DNA from: an uncultured Brachyspira sp.
GTDB taxonomy: Bacteria > Spirochaetota > Brachyspiria > Brachyspirales > Brachyspiraceae
Length of the DNA: 64,000 nucleotides
Assembly: GCF_944388875.1 (NCBI RefSeq)
Contig: NZ_CALXKQ010000003.1
Location: 62,001-126,000 of the forward strand
Direction of reading: 5' to 3'
Shown: piece by piece, positions 11,039 through 44,144 of the stretch
Numbering within the stretch: the stretch's first letter is position 1
How the letters are laid out: each line of letters begins with the position of its first letter
Position numbers and translations under genes: made by a program
Notes under the pieces: model-generated
Databases searched by the model: none
Seen by the model: the letters and a program-made list of their open reading frames with translations, nothing else
What the model was told of the DNA's origin: nothing

Positions 11039-12232
11039 ATGAAAAATAAAATTATAATTATATTATTGACAGTAATTACATCACTATATTCAAATCAAAT
11101 AAATGAAAGCAATAATGACAAAATAAAAGATAATATACAATTAAAAAACACATCAATGACAAATGAAATAAGAATGCCAAGTGATGAATTATCAAAACTA
11201 TTAGAAAAGAATAAAAATAAAACAGGCATCGCTGAGATAATTGAATTAATAAATGACGGCGGTATAAATGCTCAGTCAAAAGATGAAATTCTCATAGGCA
11301 ATATTACACATTATACTAATACAACTCCTTTAATGATAGCCTCATCATATGGGCATTATGATATAGCAAAAGCATTGATTGATAATGGGGCTTTGGTTAA
11401 TTTAAGAGCAGGCGACGGATTTAATGCTTTAATGGAATCTGTAAGAACTGATAATATAGAGATAGCAAAATTATTAATAGAAAATAATTCTGATATAAAT
11501 ATAAAAAATAAAGACGGCAAAAATATGATTATGATTGCATGCGAAAATGGCAATGAAGAAATGTTTAATCTATTACTAGAAAATAATGCAGATATAAATG
11601 AAAAATCGTCTTGGGGAGCATCTGCACTTATTTATGCTTCTGAAAAAGGCAATATTAATATAATGCAATATTTAATAGATAACGGAATAGATGTTAATGG
11701 AAAAGCCGATGATAATGGGGATACTCCATTACTTTGGGCTGTTACAGGACAAAATCCTTATGAAGCTTCAAAACTTTTAATAGAAAATGGTGCCGATGTA
11801 AATGCTACAAATAACAGCGGAGTTGCTCCTGCTACTATACTTGCAGGCTCTGTTCCTAAAGTAGTTAAACTTTTAAAAGATAATGGTGCTGATTTGGATA
11901 CAAAATTTGCTGATGATGATCCTCCTATAGCAATTGCTGCAAGCGTTGGTAATTTAGAAATAGTTAAGGCATTAGTTGAAAATGGTGCTGATGTGAACTA
12001 TTATCCTAATGATATGAACTACACTGCAATATATCATGCTATAGATCAAGGCTCTTATGAAGTTGCTGAATATTTATTTAAAAATGGTGTTGATTTAAAT
12101 ATAAAAATGAAACCTGATAATGACTATGGCAGAAGTATAAAAGAAAGCTACAATGTTTTAGAATATGCTGAAGCTATGCATGATAAAAAAATGATTAATA
12201 TAGTAAAAAAATATTATAAGAAAAAATTATGA
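11039..12232 (+). CDS. Secreted ankyrin-repeat protein
   Basis: This 397-residue protein has an N-terminal signal peptide (KNKIIIILLTVITSLYS, probable cleavage soon after) and a spacer. About eight ankyrin repeats follow: TPLMIASSYGHYDIAKALIDNG, NALMESVRTDNIEIAKLLIENN, SALIYASEKGNINIMQYLIDNG, TPLLWAVTGQ, PPIAIAASVGNLEIVKALVENG and AIYHAIDQGSYEVAEYLFKNG. The consensus is better preserved than in the protein at 3606-4901. The role is presumably protein binding outside the cytoplasm. The 3' end overlaps the convergent dynamin-like gene by 6 bp. Confidence 0.87.
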   Translation: MKNKIIIILLTVITSLYSNQINESNNDKIKDNIQLKNTSMTNEIRMPSDELSKLLEKNKNKTGIAEIIELINDGGINAQSKDEILIGNITHYTNTTPLMIASSYGHYDIAKALIDNGALVNLRAGDGFNALMESVRTDNIEIAKLLIENNSDINIKNKDGKNMIMIACENGNEEMFNLLLENNADINEKSSWGASALIYASEKGNINIMQYLIDNGIDVNGKADDNGDTPLLWAVTGQNPYEASKLLIENGADVNATNNSGVAPATILAGSVPKVVKLLKDNGADLDTKFADDDPPIAIAASVGNLEIVKALVENGADVNYYPNDMNYTAIYHAIDQGSYEVAEYLFKNGVDLNIKMKPDNDYGRSIKESYNVLEYAEAMHDKKMINIVKKYYKKKL

Positions 12233-14164
12233 TTTAATAGAAAATATATTATTTATACATTTTATTATATCATAATAAATTTTATAGGAATTATTTATAT
12301 ACAATTCATACTCTTTAATTTTATTTTCTACATTTTTTTTGATATTATTAATATTTTCATTAATATCTTTAGTGTTTTCTCTAATATTAGTGTCAATGCC
12401 TTTATCATTTTTTATACGTTCATAAGGAACTAAACCTCTATATTTAGAAACTAAACTTTTTACATAAGACATATTTGATATATATTTATTATTCACAGAT
12501 AATAATTCCTTTTTATAATTATTTAATATTTCTATATCATATTGAAATTTCTCTCTATAATTAATAAAAATATTATCAATATTGTTTTTAATAGATTCAT
12601 ATTTATCATTATTTTTTTTATTTAAATCTTTCAAAAAATCAGGTAATGATATACCATATTTAAAATTATGGTAATAATGCTCATTGGATTCTAATTTCTT
12701 ATAATGCGAAGTATAAGGTGATATTCCTACAACGCTTATTTTATGCTTTTGTAATTCTTTATCAACTTGATTACATATTTCTTTTATTTGTTTATCATCT
12801 CTAGTATCAGAACGGTTAATAATAATAAACATTTTAATTTTAGGATTAATAGATAATATTTCTTTTAAAAACTGTATATCAGTTTTTGTTATAGTTCCTT
12901 CTGTTACATTTATCAGCCATATAAGTGTATTTGTATTTACAATATGTTTTTTAGATATTTCTCTATCTTCTTTAGATTCATTGGGAGGATTATATCCTGG
13001 TGTATCAACAAAACATATATTACGTACACTCACTTTAAGTTTATCATTAATATAAAAATACTTTATCACATTTTTAGGATTAAAACTGGTTTCAATATTT
13101 TCACTTACGCTATTTTTTACAGATATAAAATCAAATATAGATTTATCAACCTTTGATTTTTTATTATCTAAAGTTAAACACTCTATATAGCTTTCTTCAC
13201 TGTGAATTATATATGCAGGTATAGAAGTAACAGGAACATCTCCTGTAGGTAAAGTAAAATAATTACCATTGCTAAACAGTGTATTTATAAATGATGATTT
13301 ACCTGAACTAAAAGCCCCTCCTATAGAAACTATATTTCTTGTATATAAAATAGGATTTTTTGCTATCTCATCTAATTCATTTTCTATATCTTTTAATTCA
13401 TAAAATAGCAAACCCATATTTTTATAATCAGGTTTTGCAATTAGATTTCTAAACTCATTTAAGTATTTATTCTCTTCTGATTTGGAATTCAAAATACTTA
13501 ATACAGATTTAAATATATTTCCAATACTCTCTTTTTCTTTCTTTTCTTCTGTTAATTCATCTTTGGTATCGTCTAACTCTCTCTCTGCCTTCTTTAATTT
13601 TTCATCAAAAGATTGTTTTTCTGTATCTAATTCTGAAATTTTGCTATTTAATTCTTTAACATTTTTTTTATACTTATTTTTTTCATTCTCCAAATCTTCT
13701 AAATCTTCATTCAGCTGATGAATACTTTTCTTTTTATTTTCTAATTCCTCATTTAAATCATTAATCTCTTTATCTTTATTTTCTAAACTGGAATTAAGAT
13801 TAGCAATATCCTGACTTTTATTTTCTATATCAGCATTTAAATTACTAATCTCTTTATCTTTATTTTCTAAATTGGAATTAAGATTAGCAATGTCCTGACT
13901 TTTATTTTCTATATCAGCATTTAAATCACTAATCTCTTTATTCTTGCTTTCCAAATTAGCATTAAGATTAGCAATATCCTGACTTTTATTTTCTATATCA
14001 GCATTTAAATTACTAATCTCTTTATTTTTAGTTTCTAAATCATTATTTAATTGAGATATTAAATTATTCAAATATGATAATTTTCTCATCTTCAATGAAA
14101 AAAATACCAATAATATTAACAAAAATATTATTACAGCAGAAAATATATATATTATATTATTCAT
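12227..14164 (-). CDS. Membrane-anchored dynamin-like GTPase with coiled-coil repeats
   Basis: This is a 645-residue protein. Residues 1-25 form one membrane helix. Residues about 30-215 are a long coiled coil that includes a 28-residue repeat (NLNADIENKSQDIANLN-type). A dynamin-family G domain follows: P-loop GGAFSSGKSSFIN, switch II VDTPGYN and NRSD as the base-specificity motif. A helical C-terminal stalk completes it. Dynamin-like proteins remodel membranes or seal membrane damage; the closest genetic parallel is multi-gene bacterial sets such as LeoABC. It is the last of three GTPase genes on this strand, 17 bp after the previous one. Confidence 0.8.
   Translation of the reverse strand: MNNIIYIFSAVIIFLLILLVFFSLKMRKLSYLNNLISQLNNDLETKNKEISNLNADIENKSQDIANLNANLESKNKEISDLNADIENKSQDIANLNSNLENKDKEISNLNADIENKSQDIANLNSSLENKDKEINDLNEELENKKKSIHQLNEDLEDLENEKNKYKKNVKELNSKISELDTEKQSFDEKLKKAERELDDTKDELTEEKKEKESIGNIFKSVLSILNSKSEENKYLNEFRNLIAKPDYKNMGLLFYELKDIENELDEIAKNPILYTRNIVSIGGAFSSGKSSFINTLFSNGNYFTLPTGDVPVTSIPAYIIHSEESYIECLTLDNKKSKVDKSIFDFISVKNSVSENIETSFNPKNVIKYFYINDKLKVSVRNICFVDTPGYNPPNESKEDREISKKHIVNTNTLIWLINVTEGTITKTDIQFLKEILSINPKIKMFIIINRSDTRDDKQIKEICNQVDKELQKHKISVVGISPYTSHYKKLESNEHYYHNFKYGISLPDFLKDLNKKNNDKYESIKNNIDNIFINYREKFQYDIEILNNYKKELLSVNNKYISNMSYVKSLVSKYRGLVPYERIKNDKGIDTNIRENTKDINENINNIKKNVENKIKEYELYINNSYKIYYDIIKCINNIFSIKS
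13717..14035 (-). repeat. 84-bp tandem repeat inside the dynamin-like gene
   Basis: Three full copies and a partial copy of an 84-base unit encode the 28-residue coiled-coil repeat. The marker GCAATRTCCTGAC on the plus strand starts at 13803, 13887 and 13971, exactly 84 bases apart. Each unit itself divides into two similar 14-residue halves. The copies are nearly identical in DNA, so copy number could change by slippage or recombination while staying in frame. Confidence 0.85.
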
Positions 14165-14181
14165 ATATAGAGTATCCTAAT

Positions 14182-16392
14182 TTAAAATAATTTTACTATT
14201 TCAGATTTTATTATAATCCACTTTTCTTCGGCTCTTTTTTTATTTTGAACCTCATCTTTTTTAGTTTCCAATTCAGACTTTTGTTTTTCTAAAGTTTCTT
14301 TACCAAAATCAATGGATTTTAATTTATTAGCCAAACTGCTGATATTTTCATCAGCAAATACAGTTCTGAAATCTTCTCTCATTTTCTGCAAATATCTGTC
14401 AGCTTCAGCTATAAATTGCTCTGCAGAATATCCTGATACAGTTCCATTTGGAGCAAGAGGCGTATTTTCAGTATATGTAACTTTTTTATCTAAATATTCA
14501 TTGATTATAGCACTTACAGATCTGGATATATCACTTTCTCTCATTTCCAAACCATTATCTGCAAAAACATTGTATATCTTACTTATAATTAACTCTCTAA
14601 ACTCAATATACATATTACCTAAAGTTATATACATCTGCTCATTAAATTTATTTTTATATAGGTTTATAGAATTAATTACCTGATTTGTATTAACAGTTGC
14701 ATATGTATCATAATGAGTTTTTTTCCACCACAAGATACCAGTAGTCCATGATCTAGTTTCTTCTCCTTTAGCACCTTCTATTTTACCGCTTGCCTCATTA
14801 AAAAAATCATTTAATATTCTTAATCCGTTGTCAATAGCTTCGTATTTCCAAGTATCAATAGTATTTTTAGCCACATAATTTATATCTGATTCTAAGTTTA
14901 CGCATTTTTTTTCTAAATCTCTTATCTGCTTAGATAATACATCTATATCCATAGTATTTAATCTTCTTTCTCTTGTTTTAACATATTCTTTTAATTCTGA
15001 TTTTATCTCTTCAGCATTATTCATATATTTTTCTTCAAACTTATCTAAAGCAGCCTTTAATATATCTTCTTTTCTATCTGCAACTGATTTTAATATAGAT
15101 TTTACTTTATCAATATTTGCTAAATAATTAAGCCAATGTATGCTTGTTTCTTTTTCAGATTTGCTAAAATAATCTGGATAAGACTCTGAAAAATTTTTAA
15201 AAACAGTATCTTCATTTTGAGACCAATTACCCCATTTTTTTACAAGACTGTCGCATATACCTGAAGAATATAATACTCTGTTTTCAATATCTTTTATTAT
15301 ACAGTCAAAAGTATCATTATTATTTGCTGCCATATCTTTAAAATTCTTTTTTATATACTGATACTGACTTGTAAGCAGAGATTTTACCGCTTTTTCTAAA
15401 TCACCGTTTGCCTTATATGAATTATCGGAACCATTTAAAGTATCATCTATCTTGCTTAAAATAACATATATTTCCTGTATACCCTCTTTTTTTAATATCT
15501 TATTAATTACATCTTTATCTGTAGCTGTAAATGCTTGTGTGGAAGGCATTAATATAAATATTACTTCGCATTTTTGCAGAAGTTCTGACGCTTTTCTATT
15601 TCTTGATTCAACAGGATCATTGAAACCCGGAGTATCAAGAACACTCACCTCTTTTAACTCTTCTATCTTTATATGCAAATTTAAACTTTTTACAAAATGC
15701 GTATATTTACCAGCCACCCCTACATAATCCTGAAGTTTTCCTGCTATATCCTCAACATTATTAAAATCAATTTTTTCAACCCCTTTAGATAAAACTTCAT
15801 TATATATACTTTTACTTGTATTTGCTATATCATTATAATTATCATACCCTGATGCCAAATATCCATTCTCTTGCATAAGTTCTTCTCTGGCTCTTTCCTC
15901 AATATTAGTTTCATCAGAAGAATAACTATTTGAAATATAATTTTGATTAAATTCATTTTTTAATTTATTGATTCTATCTTTAAGCAGCTCTTCAAATTTA
16001 TCATGCACTTTTTTATAGTTTTTAATATCATCTTCTGTAACAAATTCCACTTCAATATAATTTTTATCAGAATACTGCATATATGTAAGAGCTGCTGTCA
16101 TAGGAGTAGCTGCTTTAGGTAAAATATCTTTTCCGTCAAATAATAAAGAATTAAGAAGAGATGACTTACCTGCTTTTACTCTTCCTACAATACCTACTCT
16201 TAAAGTTCTATCCATATTAACTGTATCATTAAAATCATTCTCTATAGATTCTATACTTCCAAATTTACATTCATTTGCTATATTTTTTATAGTATCTACG
16301 AACTCTATGTCATCACTATGCTTATCAGCCAATTTATCTATTGCCTTCTTAATATCTATAATTTTATTTTTTGCTTGAATAATATCATTCAT
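14182..16392 (-). CDS. Dynamin-like GTPase, soluble
   Basis: This 736-residue protein has a near N-terminal G domain: P-loop GRVKAGKSSLLNSLL (about residue 70), G2-like TPMTAALT, G3 VLDTPGFNDP and G4 LSKIDD. An alpha-helical region with coiled coil near residues 460-510 and 690-720 follows. There is no clear membrane helix. It belongs to the bacterial dynamin-like group that acts at membranes or in stress and defence. It is the middle gene of the three-GTPase operon, with 20-bp and 17-bp gaps. The three proteins differ enough to suggest a hetero-oligomeric machine rather than recent copies. Confidence 0.8.
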   Translation of the reverse strand: MNDIIQAKNKIIDIKKAIDKLADKHSDDIEFVDTIKNIANECKFGSIESIENDFNDTVNMDRTLRVGIVGRVKAGKSSLLNSLLFDGKDILPKAATPMTAALTYMQYSDKNYIEVEFVTEDDIKNYKKVHDKFEELLKDRINKLKNEFNQNYISNSYSSDETNIEERAREELMQENGYLASGYDNYNDIANTSKSIYNEVLSKGVEKIDFNNVEDIAGKLQDYVGVAGKYTHFVKSLNLHIKIEELKEVSVLDTPGFNDPVESRNRKASELLQKCEVIFILMPSTQAFTATDKDVINKILKKEGIQEIYVILSKIDDTLNGSDNSYKANGDLEKAVKSLLTSQYQYIKKNFKDMAANNNDTFDCIIKDIENRVLYSSGICDSLVKKWGNWSQNEDTVFKNFSESYPDYFSKSEKETSIHWLNYLANIDKVKSILKSVADRKEDILKAALDKFEEKYMNNAEEIKSELKEYVKTRERRLNTMDIDVLSKQIRDLEKKCVNLESDINYVAKNTIDTWKYEAIDNGLRILNDFFNEASGKIEGAKGEETRSWTTGILWWKKTHYDTYATVNTNQVINSINLYKNKFNEQMYITLGNMYIEFRELIISKIYNVFADNGLEMRESDISRSVSAIINEYLDKKVTYTENTPLAPNGTVSGYSAEQFIAEADRYLQKMREDFRTVFADENISSLANKLKSIDFGKETLEKQKSELETKKDEVQNKKRAEEKWIIIKSEIVKLF

Positions 16393-16412
16393 AATATTAA
16401 CTCCTAATTTTT

Positions 16413-18079
16413 TTATTCATTATATAATACATTTGATACTTCATCTATTTTTTTCAAATTATCCTGAAGTTTAGATATTAAAGCATCTAAATCTTTTTTA
16501 CTTGATAATTCTTCCTGAGCTTGTTCTATTTCTTCTTTTTTCTTATTTAATTCTTCATCAAAAGATTCTGATATAGCCTCTATAGATTTTGAAGCATTTT
16601 CTTTAAATATCTGTGTTATCTGTACTTTAAGCTCTCTTTTTATATGTGTAATCTGACTTATAATCTGATTTTTAATTTCTTCTTTTTGCTGTCTTTCTTT
16701 TAAAAATCCAAAGCACACATTGATTATTTCTGGTAAAAATACTACTAAAATCTCTATAATCGGATTTACAACACTTGTTAATATTGCTGCAGTAGTCATA
16801 ACAGTTTTATATACGGTATTTGAACTTGTGCCTGTGTTTTTTAATTTAGGAATTTTTATTTTATCTTTGTATTTCTCTATATTGTATTCTATTTTCTGAA
16901 TAAAATTAGGTATATTATATTCTGATAATATAGAATCTAAACTTTTAACATCTGCTGAAATTTCTCTGCTTATATTAACATTAATATTATCCAAAGCAAT
17001 ATTTGTTTTTTCTATAATAATAGGCTGTATTATATTAAGCATCTCTTCTTTTAAACCTTCTGAATCTCCTCTCATAGCAGCATTAACCAATGAATCCAAA
17101 TTATTATTAAGTTCTTTTCCTACTTCCTGCACTATACTATTTACTTCAGAATCATAGTTTTTATTTTTTTCATCTTCTATCAATCTTGCCCTTTTCAATT
17201 CTATTTTATTTATAGCCTCTTTTAAATCATCTATAATTTTATCATTTGCTTTTTTATCTTTTTTCAAAGCTGATATTCTAACATTAATTGAAGATTTTAA
17301 TTCATATATTAACTCTTTTATTGAATCAATATAAATAGATTTACATATATTTTCAGGGTCTAATTTAGTAATAACTTCATTAAATAAATTTATATCCTTA
17401 CTGCTTATACTATATATATCTTTATCATAAGAAACCTGTTTTAAAGTTTTTATCATTTCTTCTTTAATAGAATTAAAATCTTCTTTACTTCTAAGTTCTG
17501 ATTTAGTTATAAACATTGAGAAATCTTTTTTAAATCCTCTAATATTTTTTATCTGCGTCATCAATGATTTGCTTATAGTACCAGCATCTATAGCTGAAAG
17601 CACCGTATAATAAACACCTTTATCTAAATAACTCATTATAGATTTATTGTGATTTTCTAAAGGAGAATCAAACCCCGGCATATCTACCAATATAATAGGA
17701 TCTATTTTTTCAAATTATCACTATTTATATATCTTCTTACATAAGAATATTTCTGTATATTCTCGGTACTTAGATCATCTATTTCTATTTCATTACCATC
17801 TTTATCAACAGCAATATTGTATTCTCTTTCACTATAATATAGTTCAGCAGGAATAGAAGTTTCTGGCAATACATTAACAGCCAATATATTTTTACCTATA
17901 AATTTATTTAAAAGAGTACTTTTACCTGAACTAAAATCACCTACAACAGGTATTAATAATTTCGTTTCTCTTATAATATTTTCTAAAGATTCTATATTTG
18001 AACTATCAATCTCAGATTCTTCTGATATAACTTTTAAATCAATCATAAGGTTTATAAATTTTTCCTGTATATTTAACAT
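16413..18079 (-). pseudogene. Dynamin-like GTPase split by a -1 frame change
   Basis: Two ORFs together make one G protein of about 555 residues. The first (start ATG at 18079 after AGGAG; an earlier GTG at 18088 is less likely) carries the P-loop VGDFSSGKSTLLN and stops at TAG, 17702-17704. The second continues in the -1 frame with DPIILVDMPGFDSP (G3), TKSE (G4), stalk helices, a hydrophobic segment (TVMTTAAILTSVVNPIIEILVVFLP) and a C-terminal coiled coil. The break lies at TTG AAA AAA TAG. One extra A, or -1 slippage on AAA AAA, restores NLKKIDPIILVDMPGF. It is a broken gene, a slippage-controlled gene or a base-call error. Confidence 0.8.
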
Positions 18080-36056: not shown

Positions 36057-38018
36057 ATGAGAATAATTATTACAAATGAAAGCGTTTATGAATGGGCAGC
36101 ATATTATACAGTAAAATGTATATTGGATTATTCAGATAACAAGCCGTTTGTACTGTCTTTTCCTTTAAGACATGTAAATAAAACATATTATCAAAAGCTA
36201 CTATCTTTTTATAATGACAATATAGTATCATTTAAAAATATACATATAGTATCATCAGGAGAATATATAGATTCAAATATATCCCAGAAATATTTAGAGG
36301 ATAATTTCTTAAAATATATAGATATACCAAAAGAGAATATACATTTATTTGACGGAAATGTAGCAAATAGAAAGGAAGAAGCTAGGAGAATGTCTAATAT
36401 AATAAAAGAATTGGGAAATATAACATTATTAATAGATACATTGGCTGAAGACGGAAGTTTCTTACTTAACACACCAAGCTCATCATTAGATGGAAGCGTA
36501 AGAGATAAAAAGATAAGCGAAATTATAAGAAGCTATGAGTCAAAAAAATTTAATATGCCTATAGAGATGTTCCCAAAAGAAGGATTTACATTAGGCTTTG
36601 AAGAGGCATTCAATGCCAAATACGTACTTGTAATGGCTAACGGATATGATGTATCGGATGCTTTGGCACATTGTGTGGAAGGAGCTATAAGTCAATTCTA
36701 CCCTACTTCTGTACTTCAGGAACATAAAAAACTTATAATTGTTGCCGATGAAGAGTCCAGCAGCGATTTAAAAGTAAAAACCTATAAATATGCTAAAAGT
36801 TTGGAAAGCAAAAGTCTTCATCCTAAAGAACTTATTAAAGGGCTTTATAAATCTTATTATGCACTTACTAACATTAAAATATTTGACGGTGAAAAGTTTA
36901 TAGACGGACATTGTATTGTTATAGAAAATAATGTTATTAAAAGCGTTGAAAAAGAAATAGATGTTGATGCTGTTATTACAAGAATAGATTTAGGAGGAAA
37001 AATAGTTGCCCCTGGATACATAGATTTGCAGGTTAACGGTATAGGCGGATATGATATTAATGCAACTCCTACAGTAGAAACATTAAAAAATATGAATGAA
37101 GTTTGTCAAAGATACGGATGCACTTCATATTTGCCTACAGTAATTACAAACAGCGATGAATATATGATAAAAATCATAGATTTATTTAATAATATAGAAG
37201 ATTTATCAGTAATAGGTGTTCTTGGAATACATTTTGAAGGTCCTTATATTTCTCATGAAAAAAGAGGCATACACAATGAAAAGTTTATAAGAGAACCTAA
37301 TAAAGATATGATAGAAAAAATCAATGCCTCAAAATGCGTAATGGTTACAGTTGCTCCTGAAATGGTATCAGGAGAGGTTATAGAGGATTTTGCTATGGCT
37401 GGAAAAGTAGTGTCTGTAGGTCATACTAATGGAACATACAATGAGATAAAAGAGAAAATACCTTATGGAATAACTTTTGCCACACACTTATTTAATGCTA
37501 TGCGTCCTTGGGGTTCAAGAGAGCCTGGTGCTGTTGGAGCGGTACTTGAAACTAAAGACATGTATGCTGGTTTAATATGCGACGGAGTACATTGCGATTT
37601 TGCTTCGGTGGAGCTTGCATACAAATTGAAAACAGGTCATATATGCATAGTTACTGATGCCATAGCTCCTGCTGCTGCACCAGAGATAAAAGAGTATATT
37701 TGGGCTGGAAAAAAAATACATAGGGACGGCAACAGACTTATCGATGATAATGGAACTTTAGGAGGCTCAGCAATAACTATGAGTCAGTCAGTTAGAAATG
37801 TGGTTAATCAGGTTGGTGCTGCTGTAGAAGAGGCTTTGAAAATGGCATCACTCTACCCTGCTCAGGTCATGGGGATAGATGATAAATACGGCAGAATAAA
37901 AGAAGGATATATTGCTGACTTAGTTATACTAGATGAAAACCTAATAGTAAAAGGTGTGGTATTTAAAGGAAACTACAAAGAGTATAATTATGACCATGAA
38001 TGGGTAACACATGCTTAA
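36057..38018 (+). CDS. nagA: NagB-like/NagA fusion: N-acetylglucosamine-6-phosphate deacetylase
   Basis: This is a 653-residue two-domain protein. Residues 1-260 resemble NagB (SGEYIDSN, YIDIPKENIHLFDG, LAEDGSFLLNTPSSSL, LAHCVEGAISQFYPTSVLQEHK), but the Asp before EY is Gly and the catalytic His is Ser. Residues about 270-650 are NagA, an amidohydrolase that removes acetate from GlcNAc-6-P: APGYIDLQVNG, metal Glu in IHFEGPYIS, His in VSVGHTNGT and FATHLFNAMRPW, and Asp in IVTDAIAPA. The NagA half looks fully active, the NagB half does not. AGGAG precedes ATG, and a strong terminator follows. Confidence 0.88.
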   Translation: MRIIITNESVYEWAAYYTVKCILDYSDNKPFVLSFPLRHVNKTYYQKLLSFYNDNIVSFKNIHIVSSGEYIDSNISQKYLEDNFLKYIDIPKENIHLFDGNVANRKEEARRMSNIIKELGNITLLIDTLAEDGSFLLNTPSSSLDGSVRDKKISEIIRSYESKKFNMPIEMFPKEGFTLGFEEAFNAKYVLVMANGYDVSDALAHCVEGAISQFYPTSVLQEHKKLIIVADEESSSDLKVKTYKYAKSLESKSLHPKELIKGLYKSYYALTNIKIFDGEKFIDGHCIVIENNVIKSVEKEIDVDAVITRIDLGGKIVAPGYIDLQVNGIGGYDINATPTVETLKNMNEVCQRYGCTSYLPTVITNSDEYMIKIIDLFNNIEDLSVIGVLGIHFEGPYISHEKRGIHNEKFIREPNKDMIEKINASKCVMVTVAPEMVSGEVIEDFAMAGKVVSVGHTNGTYNEIKEKIPYGITFATHLFNAMRPWGSREPGAVGAVLETKDMYAGLICDGVHCDFASVELAYKLKTGHICIVTDAIAPAAAPEIKEYIWAGKKIHRDGNRLIDDNGTLGGSAITMSQSVRNVVNQVGAAVEEALKMASLYPAQVMGIDDKYGRIKEGYIADLVILDENLIVKGVVFKGNYKEYNYDHEWVTHA

Positions 38019-38037
38019 TTATTAATTTGTGAAATAA

Positions 38038-38075
38038 AAAGCGGTAATATATCTACAAAAATATATTACCGCTTT
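38038..38075. terminator. Bidirectional terminator between nagA and the GTPase array
   Basis: A perfect 15-bp stem AAAGCGGTAATATAT (38038-38052) pairs with 38061-38075 around an eight-base loop. A-rich sequence on the left and T-rich sequence on the right let it end both the plus-strand nag operon and the minus-strand GTPase array. Confidence 0.85.
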
Positions 38076-38098
38076 AATTTTATAAAAAGTATTATTAA

Positions 38099-39208
38099 TT
38101 ATTCTGGTAATTTATAATCATCTTTATCTTTTTTGGCTTCAATAGATTCTTTAGCATATTTAAATACTATATCAGCAAATGATTTTACTTGTTCCTCAAT
38201 ATCAGTATTACCATTAAGTATAGCTTCATATAATTTATAACATGCAGCACTAACAGCCTCCCCTAAAGCAGAAGTTAATAAAGAAGCTACACTTCCATTA
38301 ATAACTCCTCCAAAGATATTTAACCCCGGTATAAATTTTAACAACTGACCTACAGCTGATTTTCCTAATACAGTCATTATTTGTCCTATAATTCCTCCGC
38401 CTGTACCAGAAGTAAGAATATTTTCTAAACCTTTTAAATCATAAATATATAATATTCTAGCTATCATTCCCATTTGATTAAGAACTAAAGCAGGAGCATC
38501 CGCAAAAGGCACAGGAATAAATCCAACCCCAAATGCCAAACCTAAATGCTGTAATATAACTCCATGTGCTCTGTTCCATTTTTCTTTTAATGAAACTTTT
38601 TGTGCTGATATAAAGCCGTCCTGTAATATGTCAGGCAATTTTTTTATTGAATCAGTAATAAGCTTATTAAGTTCATTTTTAAATAAACTGTCATTAGATA
38701 TTGAAGAAGTTTCATATATATTGATATTCTCGATTTCTTTATTTACTGTTTCTTTTAATTTTAAAATAGTATCTTCTGAAACTAAATCGCATTTTGTAAA
38801 TAAAATACTTACTATTAAACCATTTTCTCTAAATCTTTTAATAGTATTAATATCAAAATCAGTTACTTTATGACCTGAAGAAGCTATACAATACCAAACT
38901 AAATGAATATTTTCTTTTGTATTAATAACATCATCTTCAAATTTTTTTGCTTTTTCAGTGCCTACTTCATAACCCGGACTGTCAAACAATACAACACCAG
39001 CATCATAATCTTCATACTTCTCTATAGAATCAGTTACAGGCTTTCCCATTCCTGTTTTTGCTAATTCTTGACCAAATATTTTATTTATTAAGCTGCTTTT
39101 ACCTACGCCAGTACCGCCTGCCAAAAGTATATTAGGCTTTTTAACACCTTTCTTAAACTTTTCAAATTCTTCTAAAATTTTTTGATTAATTTGTTCTTCT
39201 ATTGACAT
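38099..39208 (-). CDS. Small GTPase with C-terminal membrane-associated domain
   Basis: This is a 369-residue protein. The N-terminal Era-like G domain has P-loop GGTGVGKSSLINKIFG, then VTDSIEKYE, G3 FDSPGYEVG and G4 TKCD. The C-terminal half has Gly/Ala-rich hydrophobic helices (FGVGFIPVPFADAPALVLNQMGM, GTGGGIIGQIMTVLG, IFGGVINGSVASLLTSALG) of the DUF697 kind found in GTPases linked to membranes. It is the last and most divergent member of a four-gene array, 4 bp after its neighbour, with AAAGGAG before ATG. The function is not known. Confidence 0.75.
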   Translation of the reverse strand: MSIEEQINQKILEEFEKFKKGVKKPNILLAGGTGVGKSSLINKIFGQELAKTGMGKPVTDSIEKYEDYDAGVVLFDSPGYEVGTEKAKKFEDDVINTKENIHLVWYCIASSGHKVTDFDINTIKRFRENGLIVSILFTKCDLVSEDTILKLKETVNKEIENINIYETSSISNDSLFKNELNKLITDSIKKLPDILQDGFISAQKVSLKEKWNRAHGVILQHLGLAFGVGFIPVPFADAPALVLNQMGMIARILYIYDLKGLENILTSGTGGGIIGQIMTVLGKSAVGQLLKFIPGLNIFGGVINGSVASLLTSALGEAVSAACYKLYEAILNGNTDIEEQVKSFADIVFKYAKESIEAKKDKDDYKLPE

Positions 39209-39212
39209 AATA

Positions 39213-40895
39213 TTACTCCTTTTTATTATTTTCTAATCTATTTTTAAGTTCTTCGTCTGATTTTTCTAAAATTTCATTAATTGCATCTCTCAAATTATTT
39301 TCAAATTTTTTATTTTCTTCACTTGAGATATTTTCTATAATGCCGTCAGCAACCCTATCTATAAAATAATTAATATCTTCTTTTTTTCCAGATAAATTAT
39401 AATGAATCAGCCTTCCTATATCAAATAAACCTCCAATCACCGTAGCAAGAATTACAACAGGAGATACGATGATTGTTGCTAAAATGCTTCCTATTACATC
39501 CCCTATATCAATAACTACATCACTAATAAGAAGATGAGAAAATAAATCAACAACAAAAGAATAAAAACCATAAATTTCATGATCATTTCCAGAAAATATA
39601 TCAATATCTTTATTTATACTATATAATGTTTCCGAAACCTTATAATATTTTTGTATGCTTGTTTTAACATATTCTTGCATATTATTTTTTACTAATGTAT
39701 CAAATTCTTCTTTTATAGAATCAGATAATTTTTTCAAATCATTTTCTTTAAAATCTTTCTTTTTTAATTCATCTCTTTTTTTATTTATATCAATTTTTAT
39801 CTTTTCTATTATATGCAAAGGTATTCTGTCAATAAATATTTTTCTCCAAGAGGCTAATATTGAATATTTGTACTCTTCTAATCCGAAAGGCTTAGGAGTT
39901 TCTTTCATACCTCTTTTTATTTCAGGTGCTGCCCCTACGGCTATAACAGTTTCAACACCTGTTTCATTTTTGATTATTTCAATAAACTCTTTCTCTTTCT
40001 CTTCACTTAGCTGATCTGCCTTTGTGAGAGCTACTATAACATTATATTTATCTTCTAAAAACTGTTTAATAATATTTATATCAAAATCCTGTATCTTAGC
40101 TCCTCCAGCCTGTATACAGTAAGTTACACTATGATACCAGTCTTTCATATCTTTGTCTACAGAACGGTATTTTAATTCTTCTTTTATCATATTATACCAT
40201 TTATCAGATTTACCTACTTCAAGTCCCCAGCTGTCGTATATTACTACATCTTTTCCATCTATAGTTTCTTCATGAGGAAATATACCTTCAGGAGTACAAG
40301 GTTTTCCAATGCCTGTTTCTTCTATTTTCTTACCTACTAAAGCATTAAGTAAAGAACTTTTTCCTACACCTGTCTGTCCTAAAACCAATAAATTTAATTC
40401 TATATAATTTTCTGTATTATTTCTTTTGAATGCTCTAAATACTGCTTTTTTATATTCTTCAACGCCGAAATAATTATTTGCTTCAATATTTGATATTGTA
40501 ACTATTCTGTAACATTTTGTTTTTTCTTTTATATTTTTTACCAATTCCGTTAATTGTTCTTTTACTGATAAATCTGATTTAGTTAATGCTATTATAACAC
40601 TATATTCATCAATGATAATTTTTTTTATCATTGATGCATCTTCATCAGATATTCCTATTGAATTTGAAGATACACAGTAAGTAATAACAAATGAATTTTT
40701 ATCAGCACTTTCCAAAAAGATTTGAAAATTTGTATTACTTTCAAATATAACAACATCTCTATTATCAACTTTTACTTCTATAGGATTATCTGAAGCCTTA
40801 ATATTATTTCCAACAAAAGAATTAATCAATGCACTTTTACCTGAAGCATGTTGACCTAAAATTAATAAATTTAATTTTTGATTATTTTCCGACAT
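39213..40895 (-). CDS. Tandem-G-domain GTPase, first domain degenerate
   Basis: This is a 560-residue protein. The first G-domain-like part (1-165) keeps a P-loop-like GQHASGKSALINSFVG and TKSD, but its switch region (DVVIFESNTNFQIFLE) has lost the DxxG motif and is shortened. The second (about 170-370) is complete: GQTGVGKSSLLNALVGKK, TPEGIFPHEE, YDSWGLEVG and TKAD. The C-terminus has membrane-like segments (VVIDIGDVIGSILATIIVSPVVILATVIGG). It belongs to the same array as its neighbours. The pattern suggests domain duplication followed by decay of one copy, perhaps to a regulatory half. Confidence 0.78.
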   Translation of the reverse strand: MSENNQKLNLLILGQHASGKSALINSFVGNNIKASDNPIEVKVDNRDVVIFESNTNFQIFLESADKNSFVITYCVSSNSIGISDEDASMIKKIIIDEYSVIIALTKSDLSVKEQLTELVKNIKEKTKCYRIVTISNIEANNYFGVEEYKKAVFRAFKRNNTENYIELNLLVLGQTGVGKSSLLNALVGKKIEETGIGKPCTPEGIFPHEETIDGKDVVIYDSWGLEVGKSDKWYNMIKEELKYRSVDKDMKDWYHSVTYCIQAGGAKIQDFDINIIKQFLEDKYNVIVALTKADQLSEEKEKEFIEIIKNETGVETVIAVGAAPEIKRGMKETPKPFGLEEYKYSILASWRKIFIDRIPLHIIEKIKIDINKKRDELKKKDFKENDLKKLSDSIKEEFDTLVKNNMQEYVKTSIQKYYKVSETLYSINKDIDIFSGNDHEIYGFYSFVVDLFSHLLISDVVIDIGDVIGSILATIIVSPVVILATVIGGLFDIGRLIHYNLSGKKEDINYFIDRVADGIIENISSEENKKFENNLRDAINEILEKSDEELKNRLENNKKE

Positions 40896-40912
40896 ATTTA
40901 ATTCCTTTTATG

Positions 40913-42664
40913 TTAATTTTGAGAATATTCAGAAAGTTTTTTATCTGTTTCTTCTAAACATTTTATAATTGCATTCTTAATATTCAAAATATAATCTTTC
41001 CCAACAATTTGATATTTAAGTTTATCTATAAGCTCATTAATGAATTTCTCTCTCTGAGCTTCTTTTATTTTTCCTCCAAATATAGTAAATATTCCTCCTA
41101 CTATTGCTAAAGGCAATCCTATGAATGGCAAAAATATACCAAGTGTAAATAAAAATTTAAAAAATCCAATATTAAATAATAAATCAAAAATATTTTCAAA
41201 ATCCATATTAAAAAAATTATCTTTGTAAAAACTATATTGATGAAAATTATATCTAGCATTATTAATTAACATACCGCTGTTAAGAGATACTATATCTATT
41301 TGAATATTATAATATGCTTTTATAGTATCTTTAATATATAGTAAAATTTCATCTTTAAAAAACTGCTCTATCTCTTCAGTAATACTGCTTTTTAATACAT
41401 TATCATTTAGATTGTATTTTTTATATTTATTAATAAGTTCATATCTTTTATTTTCTAAATCATTTTTTATTTTTTCAGATATATAAATAGGAACTCTCTC
41501 AATGAACATCTGTTTCCAAGATTCTAATACAGCAATTTGATAATCATCAAGTCCCAAAGGAGAAGGAGTTTCTGTCATACCTCTTAATTTATCTGGAGAA
41601 GCTGCAATTGGTATTACTTTTTTAACCCCTGTTACATTTTTGATTATTTCAATAAACTCTTTTTCTTTATCTTCACTAATCTGATCTGCTTTTGTCAATG
41701 CTATTACAACATCATATTTCTCTTCAATAAACTGTTTAATAATGTTTATATCGAAATCTTGTATTTTATCTCCTCCAGCATTTATACAATAAGTTACACT
41801 ATGAAACCAGTCTTTTATATCTTTATCTACCCCTCTTCGCTTCAGTTCATCTTTGATTATTTGTTCCCATTCTTTATCCTTTCCAACTTCAAGCCCCCAA
41901 CTGTCATATATTACAACATCTTTTCCATTAATAGAAGTTTCATGCGGAAATATACCTCTTTTAGTTATAGGTTTTCCAACACCTGTTTTTTCAACTTCAT
42001 ACCCTACCAAAACATTTATTAAACTGCTTTTTCCTACTCCTGTTTGTCCAAGTATAAGCATATTTAATTCAATATAATTTTCTAATGCATTACGTTTACA
42101 TATTCTGAAAATTGTTCTTTTATACTCTTCCAAACCAAAAGGAGAAGGAGTTTCTGTCATACCTCTTAATTTATCTGGAGAAGCTGCAATTGGTATTACT
42201 TGTTCAACACCTGTTTCTTCTTTTATTATATCAATGAATTCTTTTCTAAGAGATTCTTCTATTTGATCTGCCTTTGTCAATGCTATTACAACATCATATT
42301 GATTTTCTATAAATTGTTTAATAATTTTTATATCAAAATACTGTATTTTAAATCCTCCGGCCTGTATACAATAGGTAACGCTATGAAATCTATCTTTAAT
42401 GTCATTACATCTTATATATAATTCATTTCTTATTATTCTTTCCCATTCTTCGATTTTATCTACTTCAAGCCCATAACTGTTATATATTACAACATCTTTA
42501 CCGTCAATAGAAGTTTCATACGGAAATATACCTCTTGCAGCTATAGGTTTTCCCGTACCAGTTATTTCAACTTCATGACCTACTAAAGCATTTATTAAAC
42601 TGCTTTTTCCAACTCCTCTTTGTCCCAAAATTAGTAAATTAAACTTCTGATTATTTTCCGACAT
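40913..42664 (-). CDS. Tandem-G-domain GTPase, both domains complete
   Basis: This 583-residue protein has two closely related G domains: GQRGVGKSSLINALVG, YNSYGLEVD and TKAD in the first, then GQTGVGKSSLINVLVG, YDSWGLEVG and TKAD in the second. Both are followed by the marker SPDKLRGMTETPSP. The C-terminal region has a hydrophobic hairpin (FFKFLFTLGIFLPFIGLPLAIVG). The second domain's DNA is nearly identical in places to the neighbouring gene at 42682-43791, so the duplication is recent or maintained by gene conversion. Membrane-linked homodimeric or intramolecular G-domain pairing is plausible. Confidence 0.8.
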   Translation of the reverse strand: MSENNQKFNLLILGQRGVGKSSLINALVGHEVEITGTGKPIAARGIFPYETSIDGKDVVIYNSYGLEVDKIEEWERIIRNELYIRCNDIKDRFHSVTYCIQAGGFKIQYFDIKIIKQFIENQYDVVIALTKADQIEESLRKEFIDIIKEETGVEQVIPIAASPDKLRGMTETPSPFGLEEYKRTIFRICKRNALENYIELNMLILGQTGVGKSSLINVLVGYEVEKTGVGKPITKRGIFPHETSINGKDVVIYDSWGLEVGKDKEWEQIIKDELKRRGVDKDIKDWFHSVTYCINAGGDKIQDFDINIIKQFIEEKYDVVIALTKADQISEDKEKEFIEIIKNVTGVKKVIPIAASPDKLRGMTETPSPLGLDDYQIAVLESWKQMFIERVPIYISEKIKNDLENKRYELINKYKKYNLNDNVLKSSITEEIEQFFKDEILLYIKDTIKAYYNIQIDIVSLNSGMLINNARYNFHQYSFYKDNFFNMDFENIFDLLFNIGFFKFLFTLGIFLPFIGLPLAIVGGIFTIFGGKIKEAQREKFINELIDKLKYQIVGKDYILNIKNAIIKCLEETDKKLSEYSQN

Positions 42665-42681
42665 ATTTTATTCCTAAATAT

Positions 42682-43791
42682 TTATTGATTATTTAAAGTT
42701 ATATTGTCTATATCATCTAATACCTTATTTAAAGTTTCTCTTATATAATTTTCTCTATCTTTATCAGATAATTTTTCATATAATAATTTTGCAATTTCTT
42801 CGATTGTATCTTCTTTAATTTTTTTAGCGAATAAAGATCTTACTTGCTGTGCTATAAGCTTAAAAAGAATATCAGCAATAGTAGGAGCAGTAATAGTAGT
42901 AGCTATTAAAACACCAACAGTAGGAAAAGGCATGAATGGAAACGCCATTTTTGGATGATAGGTTCTGAAAAGATGAACATTTAAAGACATTATATCAACG
43001 TATATGTTATAATATTTGCCTATATATTCCTGTAAGTATCTATTAGCTTCTTCTTCAATTAATTTTTGAAATTCATTTAATACAATATCTTGAAAATTAT
43101 CGCCTATGGTATTACAGTCTTTAAATTTATAATTTAATTCGAATTTTCCCTTATCCATTACATATTTTTTCAATCTTTCAATTATAGAAATAGGTACTCT
43201 GTCAAGAAATATTTTTTTCCAAGATGCTAATATAGCATCTTGATATTCTGAAAGACCAAAAGGTTCAGGAGTTTCTGTCATAAATCTTGTTTTTTCAGGA
43301 GCTGCACTAACAGATATGACAGTTTCTACATTTGTTTCTTTTTTAATGATATTAATAAATTCTATAGTCTTTTCTTCACTAATTTGATCAGATTTAGTTA
43401 ATGCTATAACGACATTATATTTTTTATCAGTAAACTGTTTAATAATTTTTTTATCAAAATCTTCTATTCTATTTCCTCCAGCCTGTATGCAGTAAGTAAC
43501 ACTATGGAACCAATCTTTTATATCTTTATCTACCCCTCTTTGTTCCAATTCATTTTTGATTATTTTTTCCCATTCTTGAGATTTATCTACTTCAAGTCCC
43601 CAGCTATCGTATATTACAACATCTTTACCTCCAATAGAAGTTTCATGCGGAAAAATTCCTCTTTTTGTTACTGGTTTGCCTATTCCTGTTTCCTCTACCT
43701 GCTTACCTACTAATGAATTAAGCAAACTGCTTTTACCTGTACCTGTTTTTCCCAAAATTAATAAATTTAATTTTATTTCATCATTATTCAT
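42682..43791 (-). CDS. Single-G-domain GTPase heading the array
   Basis: This 369-residue protein has P-loop GKTGTGKSSLLNSLVGKQ, then KPVTKRGIFPHETSI, G3 YDSWGLEVD, G4 TKSD and the array marker APEKTRFMTETPEP. A helical part follows, with a hydrophobic stretch (AFPFMPFPTVGVLIATTITAPTIADILF). It is the first gene of the minus-strand array and probably represents the ancestral one-domain layout. Resemblance to interferon-inducible IRG-type and YeeP/YfjP-type GTPases is by motif only. Confidence 0.78.
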   Translation of the reverse strand: MNNDEIKLNLLILGKTGTGKSSLLNSLVGKQVEETGIGKPVTKRGIFPHETSIGGKDVVIYDSWGLEVDKSQEWEKIIKNELEQRGVDKDIKDWFHSVTYCIQAGGNRIEDFDKKIIKQFTDKKYNVVIALTKSDQISEEKTIEFINIIKKETNVETVISVSAAPEKTRFMTETPEPFGLSEYQDAILASWKKIFLDRVPISIIERLKKYVMDKGKFELNYKFKDCNTIGDNFQDIVLNEFQKLIEEEANRYLQEYIGKYYNIYVDIMSLNVHLFRTYHPKMAFPFMPFPTVGVLIATTITAPTIADILFKLIAQQVRSLFAKKIKEDTIEEIAKLLYEKLSDKDRENYIRETLNKVLDDIDNITLNNQ

Positions 43792-43986
43792 TATACTCTA
43801 TTCCTTTAATAAAATTATAAAAAAGATGTAATTAAAAAAATATATCACATAATTTTAGCATAATATAGATTTTAAATTCATAAATAACAATCTTAATTTA
43901 ATTATAAACAAATGCTAAGAAAAATCAATATTATTATGCCTTTTTTAATATAAAAACATATAGTATAAAATTAATAATATATATGC

Positions 43987-44015
43987 TTGACTAAAAATAA
44001 TATTTATGTTATCAT
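43987..44015 (+). promoter_or_regulatory. Sigma-70 promoter for tRNA-Ser and fliO
   Basis: TTGACT at 43987-43992 and TATCAT at 44010-44015 are separated by exactly 17 bases. Initiation would fall at about 44022, some 23 bases before the tRNA. Confidence 0.65.
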
Positions 44016-44044
44016 AACCAAACTATTTGAAAAAATATATAATT

Positions 44045-44130
44045 GGAGAGATGCCCGAGAGGCCGAAGGGAGCAGTTTGCTAAACTGTCGTAGGCAACCC
44101 CTACCGCGGGTTCGAATCCCGCTCTCTCCG
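44045..44130 (+). tRNA. tRNA-Ser(GCU)
   Basis: The 86-base cloverleaf has acceptor stem GGAGAGA with TCTCTCC and discriminator G. The anticodon stem-loop CAGTTTGCTAAACTG carries GCT, so it reads AGC and AGU. A long variable arm (TCGTAGGCAACCCCTACCGC region) is typical of class II serine tRNA, and the T-arm is CGGGTTCGAATCCCG. CCA is not encoded. Confidence 0.97.
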
Positions 44131-44144
44131 TATTCGGTTTATAT

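What the first reader, a model, noticed from the sequence alone, without database searches (positions are those of the whole stretch)
38099..43791. Array of four paralogous GTPases with domain duplication and decay
The order along the strand shows a one-domain protein (42682), a two-domain protein with both G domains complete (40913), a two-domain protein whose first G domain has lost the DxxG switch (39213), and a more divergent one-domain protein with a DUF697-like tail (38099). Nearly identical DNA blocks between the first two suggest recent duplication or gene conversion. All end in hydrophobic segments. Pairing of an active with an inactive G domain recalls regulated GTPases at membranes.
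Basis: partly seen in the sequence, partly recalled or inferred. Interest (0 to 1): 0.7.

Follow-up and report, generated by a model that had tools for sequence, protein, structure and literature searches.

The report
Immune-like GTPase array in swap site
Four neighbouring bacterial genes make membrane-linked molecular switches that look like animal immunity GTPases; three of them grew by recent duplication, and related bacteria keep a DNA-cutting phage-defence gene or nothing at the same spot, so the array is probably an undescribed phage-defence module.

Summary
The four genes are real and form one operon (42682 > 38099, minus strand). A, B and C carry five G domains of one septin/AIG1(GIMAP)-like family that multiplied inside this lineage. 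B is a two-domain gene, C is its copy, and C's first G domain has lost switch I and DxxG but keeps an open frame. The fourth gene, D, is not a recent paralogue. It belongs to an old, widespread sister family (G domain + DUF697-like tail) whose predicted fold matches animal immunity-related GTPases (IRG) over about 290 residues, although its helical half shows no sequence homology to them.

A-type and D-type genes also pair in other phyla and on an Acinetobacter plasmid; D-type genes ride plasmids and viral contigs. B relatives and full-length D genes occur in 2 of 26 same-genus genomes. The array fills an exact slot between nagA and the tRNA-Ser promoter. In 13 other genomes that slot holds a type IIG-like restriction enzyme (7), an AAA ATPase pair (2), a PLP enzyme (1) or nothing (3).

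Best reading: an undescribed membrane-acting immunity GTPase module with duplicated regulatory or decoy pseudo-domains. Anti-phage function is inferred, not tested.

The parts
42682..43791 (-). A: one G domain (GKTGTGKS, DSWG, TKSD) of septin/AIG1 type plus helical tail with a weak hydrophobic segment; first gene of the operon
   Evidence: (AIG1 33.8 bits, cut-off 27)
40913..42664 (-). B: two A-type G domains (G3 of the first is NSYG, second intact) plus a tail with a strong hydrophobic stretch at residues 492-533
42083..42664 (-). B1: first G domain of B (residues 1-194), G3 Asp replaced by Asn
41474..42082 (-). B2: second G domain of B (residues 195-397), all motifs present
39213..40895 (-). 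C: copy of the two-domain layout; first G domain degenerate, second intact; tail with hydrophobic stretches at 444-498
40413..40895 (-). C1: degenerate G domain (residues 1-161), P-loop and TKSD kept, switch I and DxxG lost, frame open
38099..39208 (-). D: G domain (GGTGVGKS, DSPGYE, TKCD) plus DUF697-like helical domain; predicted IRG-like fold; last gene of the operon
38038..38075 (-). Terminator-like inverted repeat (17 pairs plus T-rich tail) after D
43862..43928 (-). Promoter-like consensus matches upstream of A (no more than chance over the region)
38019..43970 (.). The slot: homology with same-genus genomes stops at about 38018-38052 (after nagA) and resumes at about 43941-43978, just before the tRNA-Ser promoter
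43987..44131 (+). tRNA-Ser(GCT) at 44044-44131 with promoter-like TTGACT-17-TATCAT at 43987-44015: conserved right edge of the slot

Best explanation
A horizontally mobile immunity-type module of membrane-acting GTPases, most likely anti-phage. Its core is a pair: a septin/GIMAP-like GTPase with a hydrophobic tail (A-type) and an IRG-like GTPase with a DUF697 helical domain (D-type). Shown: the gene order, the pairing in other lineages, the lineage-specific amplification of the A-type partner (A, B, C), the loss of G3 in B1 and C1 with open frames kept, the patchy distribution, and the swap with a restriction enzyme in the same slot. Inferred: GTP-bound A- and D-type domains dimerise or oligomerise through their G faces at the inner membrane when infection disturbs it, and wall off, vesiculate or permeabilise that membrane, limiting phage production or release. 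Also inferred: B1 and C1 act as built-in regulatory or decoy partners, as proposed for tandem and quasi IRGs.
For: Slot swap: of 14 same-genus genomes with both flanks within 6.2 kb, one has this array, 7 a type IIG-like restriction gene, 2 an AAA_15 ATPase with a 198-aa partner, 1 a PLP enzyme, 3 nothing. Patchiness: B relatives in 2 of 26 genomes; full-length D-type genes in the same 2 of 26. Mobility: D relatives on 72 of 72,556 plasmid records, including a 7.6-kb Acinetobacter plasmid with an adjacent D-A pair and 5-kb plasmids, and on 27 viral contigs. Co-inheritance: A and D distances correlate over 13 pairs (r 0.59, 0 of 10000 permutations; r 0.42, 18 of 10000 without G001). Kinship: Septin over cut-off in all four proteins and AIG1 over cut-off in A, B and C; D model against IRG structures Z 16.0-18.6 over 277-298 residues. 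D-type neighbours include Dynamin_N proteins: 7 of 95 near, at most 1 of 95 far.
Against: No experiment. No strong match to any PADLOC model: best 41.9 bits (LeoBC) over about 130 residues of G001's D. PADLOC families at E 1e-25 were not visibly more common near than far from D-type genes. The slot also holds a metabolic PLP enzyme in one genome. The D helical domain has no sequence match to IRG or any solved protein. Z for IRG ties with G-domain-only matches such as YsxC 18.2. Only 8 of 48 named-genome loci with D have an adjacent A, so D often acts without it.
Confidence: 0.5

Rival explanations
1. A membrane-maintenance or vesicle-release module, like LeoABC or stress dynamins, without a primary role against phage.
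For: LeoA/LeoBC are the best PADLOC matches; LeoABC is reported to promote vesicle secretion (PMC4159319, abstract and passages); hydrophobic tails.
Against: Presence in only 2 of 26 related genomes and exchange with a restriction enzyme or an empty site in the same slot do not fit a maintenance need; carriage by small plasmids and viral contigs.
Confidence: 0.2
2. A weapon between mobile elements: superinfection exclusion or anti-defence cargo of prophages, phage-plasmids and plasmids, captured in chromosomes.
For: D-type genes lie as a lone opposite-strand gene in the nucleotide-metabolism region of a 112-kb Klebsiella plasmid with phage genes and between lysis and baseplate-like genes in viral contigs such as L193.
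Against: D-type loci were also found in 48 named-genome loci across many phyla; by eye the slot in the window shows no phage or integrase gene. This rival overlaps with defence in effect.
Confidence: 0.15
3. A bacterial septin-like scaffold with a structural role in cell shape or division.
For: Pfam Septin is over its cut-off in all four proteins and septins are the best sequence matches in the PDB.
Against: Matches stop before the end of the septin model, and 24 of 26 relatives lack the genes.
Confidence: 0.08

Closest known systems
Immunity-related GTPases (IRG; Irga6/IIGP1, Irgb6, Irgb10)
   Same: Predicted D fold aligns over 277-298 residues, the only family in the list that covers both G and helical domains; hydrophobic residue after DxxG; tandem and quasi-GTPase forms proposed to regulate partners (PMC1297648 passages).
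   Different: No sequence homology of the helical half; Pfam IIGP matches 14 of 43 D-type members at E 0.01 or better, best 1.8e-5, and not D itself; bacterial.
GIMAP/AIG1, Toc and septin GTPases (paraseptins)
   Same: A-type G domains: AIG1 over cut-off in A, B, C; Septin over cut-off in all; fold matches to Toc34, GIMAP2/5/7, septins; TKxD in G4.
   Different: Tail differs; two-domain fusion with a degenerate domain; operon with an IRG-like partner.
Eleos (LeoA/LeoBC) defence system and ETEC LeoABC
   Same: Operon of unlike membrane GTPases; weak PADLOC matches. That Eleos is linked to human GIMAPs is recalled; [quoted passage not shown]
   Different: Proteins are shorter and only about 130 residues align to the 559- and 601-position models; no dynamin trunk.
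DynA, dynamin-like anti-phage protein of Bacillus subtilis
   Same: Membrane GTPase that delays lysis on infection (PMC8844932 abstract): a working model for the effect.
   Different: Different family; core chromosomal gene rather than slot cargo (the latter recalled).
iSTAND ternary and DO-GTPase conflict systems
   Same: Prokaryotic conflict systems with AIG/GIMAP-type GTPase effectors and with paired GTPases (PMC7159879 passages).
   Different: By eye, no MoxR, vWA, iSTAND or GAP1 gene next to this array.

Membership tests
IRG (D protein) | G domain plus IRG helical fold | tested here: met
   AlphaFold model pLDDT 84.8; 15 of 50 rows shown are IRG-type (Gm4951 counted so from recall), aligned 277-298 residues, Z 16.0-18.6, rmsd 4.9-5.7; the other 35 align 180 residues or fewer. 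Predicted model only; helical part has lower confidence.
IRG (D protein) | Sequence homology in the helical domain | tested here: not met
   Profile of 41 D-type helical domains found no IRG in the PDB up to E 10
IRG (D protein) | Pfam IIGP match over gathering score | tested here: not met
   Not listed for D; 14 of 43 D-type members at E<=0.01, best 1.8e-5
IRG (D protein) | Interferon-induced expression in vertebrates | not testable with these tools
   bacterial gene
AIG1/GIMAP (A, B, C) | Pfam AIG1 over gathering score (27) | tested here: met
   A 33.8, B 36.7, C 29.1; D 24.2 fails
Septin | Pfam Septin over cut-off (26.2) | tested here: met
   D 43.9, C 58.2, B 65.5, A 29.5
Septin | Septin-specific C-terminal part of the domain (last third of the model) | tested here: not met
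   best stretches end at model positions 173-197 of 280
Dynamin | Whole dynamin G domain (Dynamin_N) plus trunk | tested here: not met
   Dynamin_N best stretches cover 31-36 residues at the P-loop only
Eleos | Full-length LeoA and LeoBC matches | tested here: not met
   40 bits or less over parts of the models in the array; 41.9 bits over model positions 56-186 of 601 for the G001 D
Anti-phage defence system | Protection from phage when expressed | not tested
   needs the bench
Defence hotspot cargo | Same slot holds known defence genes in relatives | tested here: met
   7 of 13 other genomes hold a 1039-1084 aa gene; the one scanned (L146) is PADLOC type IIG at E 1.9e-295; the other six judged by near-identical starts

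The most novel reading that the evidence does not exclude
Bacteria carry a mobile two-part immune system that joins a GIMAP/septin-like GTPase with a true relative of IRGs, the fold evidence that Bekpen and colleagues asked for in 2005; and in this lineage the GIMAP-like part has grown into an array whose inactive G domains act as decoys or regulators against phage inhibitors, in parallel with tandem and quasi IRGs of vertebrates.
Probability: 0.25. Interest if true: 0.88.

Novelty: new variant of a known kind. Interest (0 to 1): 0.62.

Why it matters
If true, two families of vertebrate cell-autonomous immunity GTPases, IRG and GIMAP, would have paired bacterial counterparts in one operon, and the question of whether bacterial IRG-like GTPases share the IRG fold (left open in PMC1297648) becomes directly testable with one crystal or cryo-EM structure. 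It would also give a natural example of a pseudo-GTPase domain arising in a defence array, and a candidate defence system that current databases miss.

Tried and rejected
Recent duplication of all four genes: rejected for D. Gene conversion between A and B: rejected; only B1/B2 shows a tract (A/C1 had a 21-nt run reached by 22 of 5000 shuffles, weak, and ten pairs were tested). Dead pseudodomain for C1: rejected by the open frame, although the flat identity by codon position (0.52, 0.67, 0.57 against B1) shows loosened constraint.

A decayed G domain at the start of the Kurthia A-type proteins (L093, L107) looked likely by eye, but profile comparison gave probability 0.3 and E 0.18; not claimed.

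Defence neighbours by PADLOC: 95 of 199 near proteins sampled at random and all 95 far ones; no clear difference. The tool gives a tally per family, not per protein, so this is inconclusive. Dynamin_N 7 of 95 near against at most 1 of 95 far was noticed after looking.

The B model (pLDDT 70.3, pTM 0.62, 12 sequences) is too weak to say how B1 and B2 pack. A first genome-contig scan with A1 found nothing. Phage-record searches gave 2 of 50,697 records for D and none for the Cronobacter D. Integration at the tRNA 3' end: rejected, since the slot lies on the 5' side. Literature: the Eleos/GIMAP study itself was not in the held library; no paper joining DUF697 GTPases with phage defence turned up (listings only), which covers open-access PMC only.
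Full report
SETTING. The window is G000:C3:62001-126000 of a 3.1-Mb, 27% GC genome (GC is that of the window). From gene content I take it to be Brachyspira; this is recalled judgement, not a named hit. The genus set has 26 genomes.

OBSERVATION. The four ORFs are complete and lie in one direction with gaps of 17, 17 and 4 nt. A strong terminator-like repeat follows D at 38038-38075. G motifs: A intact; B1 has NSYG in place of DxxG; B2 intact; C1 has a P-loop and TKSD but neither switch I nor DxxG; C2 intact; D intact. All G4 motifs read TKxD.

DUPLICATION. In a 28-row maximum-likelihood tree of G domains, A, B1, B2, C1, C2 and the A-type domain of genome G001 form one group (100/99), and D groups with D-type genes of other phyla (100/98 for the A/D split; D with G001's D 100/98). 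C1 is a long branch, so its exact place inside the group is unsure. B and C share the two-domain layout and both linkers. B1 and B2 share a 64-nt identical run (codons for QVIPIAASPDKLRGMTETPSPF), reached by 0 of 5000 codon shuffles, against a mean of 24: a local conversion tract or strong local constraint. The C1 frame stayed open through 197 of 477 nt differences from B1; 2 of 20000 unconstrained simulations did so.

FAMILIES. Pfam puts all four over the Septin cut-off and A, B, C over AIG1. Profiles of both types match septins best in the PDB, then Der, Toc33/34 and GIMAP7 (A-type) or IRG proteins (D-type). DUF697 matches 39 of 43 D-type proteins and IIGP 14 of 43 at E 0.01. The D model (pLDDT 84.8, pTM 0.85) has IRG chains as its top Foldseek hits, E 5.9e-9 onward, with TM 0.41-0.55 among the first 20. 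By VIA-align 15 of 50 rows are IRG-type and alone cover G and helical domains (277-298 residues, Z 16.0-18.6, rmsd 4.9-5.7), while the other 35 align 180 residues or fewer; the top G-domain-only rows have about the same Z. By sequence, the helical domain of 41 D-type proteins matches no solved structure. So the fold relation is predicted, and common descent of the helical half is open. Bekpen et al. wrote that bacterial GTPases reminiscent of IRG exist, and that a stronger case would follow from structural evidence of the IRG fold (PMC1297648 passages). D-type proteins share the hydrophobic residue after DxxG that they mention (42 of 43 rows show D-x-x-G followed by a residue other than Q; one row missed the pattern).

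PAIRING. D-A neighbours occur in genomes G001, G320 (one D, two A), G238 and G352 of the same phylum, in 8 of 48 named-genome loci with a full-length D (Exiguobacterium, two Pseudomonas, Synergistales, Succinivibrio, Oscillospiraceae, Bacteroidales, Kurthia), and on an Acinetobacter plasmid and two Klebsiella plasmids, where the A-type partner is only 233 aa, next to sul2. 4 of 48 loci have a second adjacent D. Distances of A and D over 13 pairs correlate (r 0.59, 0 of 10000; without G001 r 0.42, 18 of 10000), as expected for joint transfer. In the phylum search 7 of 392 genomes gave matches to the A-type profile at E 3.3e-15 or better; 185 matched at 1e-3, most of them weakly.

THE SLOT. nagA (36057-38018) and the fliO-like gene (44145; both names from recall) occur in 26 of 26 genomes. 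By their coordinates they lie within 6.2 kb of each other in 14. In 13 other genomes homology to the window stops at 38018-38052 and resumes at 43941-43978, ahead of the tRNA-Ser promoter. Contents: a 1039-1084 aa gene in 7 (G005, G006, G008, G010, G022, G024, G025), of which the one scanned is type IIG in PADLOC (E 1.9e-295) and carries Type_ISP_C and N6_Mtase; an AAA_15 ATPase with a 198-aa protein in 2 (G004, G016; split in G016), the one scanned being closest to PD-T4-4_A and AriA; a PLP enzyme in G002; nothing in G007, G009, G018. G005 and G006 hold small further ORFs beside the restriction gene. The other 12 genomes have the flanks apart or on separate contigs and were not read. In G001 the D-A pair sits in another place whose flanking genes (82% and 72% identical) enclose a different GTPase cluster in G000:C10, so modules of this kind are exchanged at two sites.

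MOBILITY. D relatives: 72 of 72,556 plasmid records, 2 of 50,697 phage records, 27 IMG/VR contigs, 24 of them scoring 250 bits or more, none with an adjacent A-type gene. By simple patterns I placed 4 of the 27 near lysis/baseplate-like genes, 5 near the exonuclease set seen on Klebsiella plasmids and 4 near serine recombinases; 14 stayed unplaced.

FUNCTION. The case for immunity rests on position, distribution, mobility and family, not on experiment. B. subtilis DynA delays lysis of infected cells from the membrane (PMC8844932 abstract), and AIG/GIMAP-type GTPases occur as effectors in prokaryotic conflict systems (PMC7159879 passages). I propose that A- and D-type proteins form GTP-dependent mixed assemblies at the membrane, with B1 and C1 as non-switching partners. 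Against this: PADLOC near/far counts do not differ clearly, D is often without an adjacent A (40 of 48), and one slot occupant is metabolic.

VERDICT. New variant of a known kind (membrane immunity-type GTPase modules).

Noticed in passing
window 12227-18079: A three-gene dynamin-like operon; homologous trios lie at G000:C18 (L053) and G000:C27 (L054). The G domain of the third gene is split over two overlapping frames near 17705-17714, while L053 and L054 homologues are intact.
   Followed up: partly
L052 (G000:C10:24000-36500) and L046 (G001): Same chromosomal site, different GTPase modules: a D-type gene with a second GTPase, an HTH + P-loop protein and two HPr-domain proteins in G000; a D-A pair in G001.
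   Followed up: partly
L046 8155-9984: The A-type protein of G001 has a long N-terminal part with an internal repeat (MTEEQKKKCEEI twice) before a single G domain.
   Followed up: no
L147 (G016) 296-1608: The AAA ATPase at the slot is split in two ORFs here but intact in G004.
   Followed up: no
L107 6667-7782: In Kurthia massiliensis a TnpB-like gene (recalled from its sequence) separates the A-type and D-type genes, which are adjacent in Kurthia sp. 3B1D.
   Followed up: no
L193, L195, L197, L198: D-type GTPase gene between lysis-like and baseplate-like genes of P2-like viral contigs (phage labels recalled), a likely accessory-gene site.
   Followed up: partly
L178 11944-13050: D-type GTPase is an opposite-strand gene in a run of nucleotide-metabolism and replication genes on a 112-kb Klebsiella oxytoca plasmid that looks like a phage-plasmid.
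   Followed up: no
L103 and L109, 4241-7644: Pseudomonas D-type genes follow a pair of GTPase-like genes shared by both loci; Dynamin_N was found in 7 of 95 near neighbours overall.
   Followed up: partly
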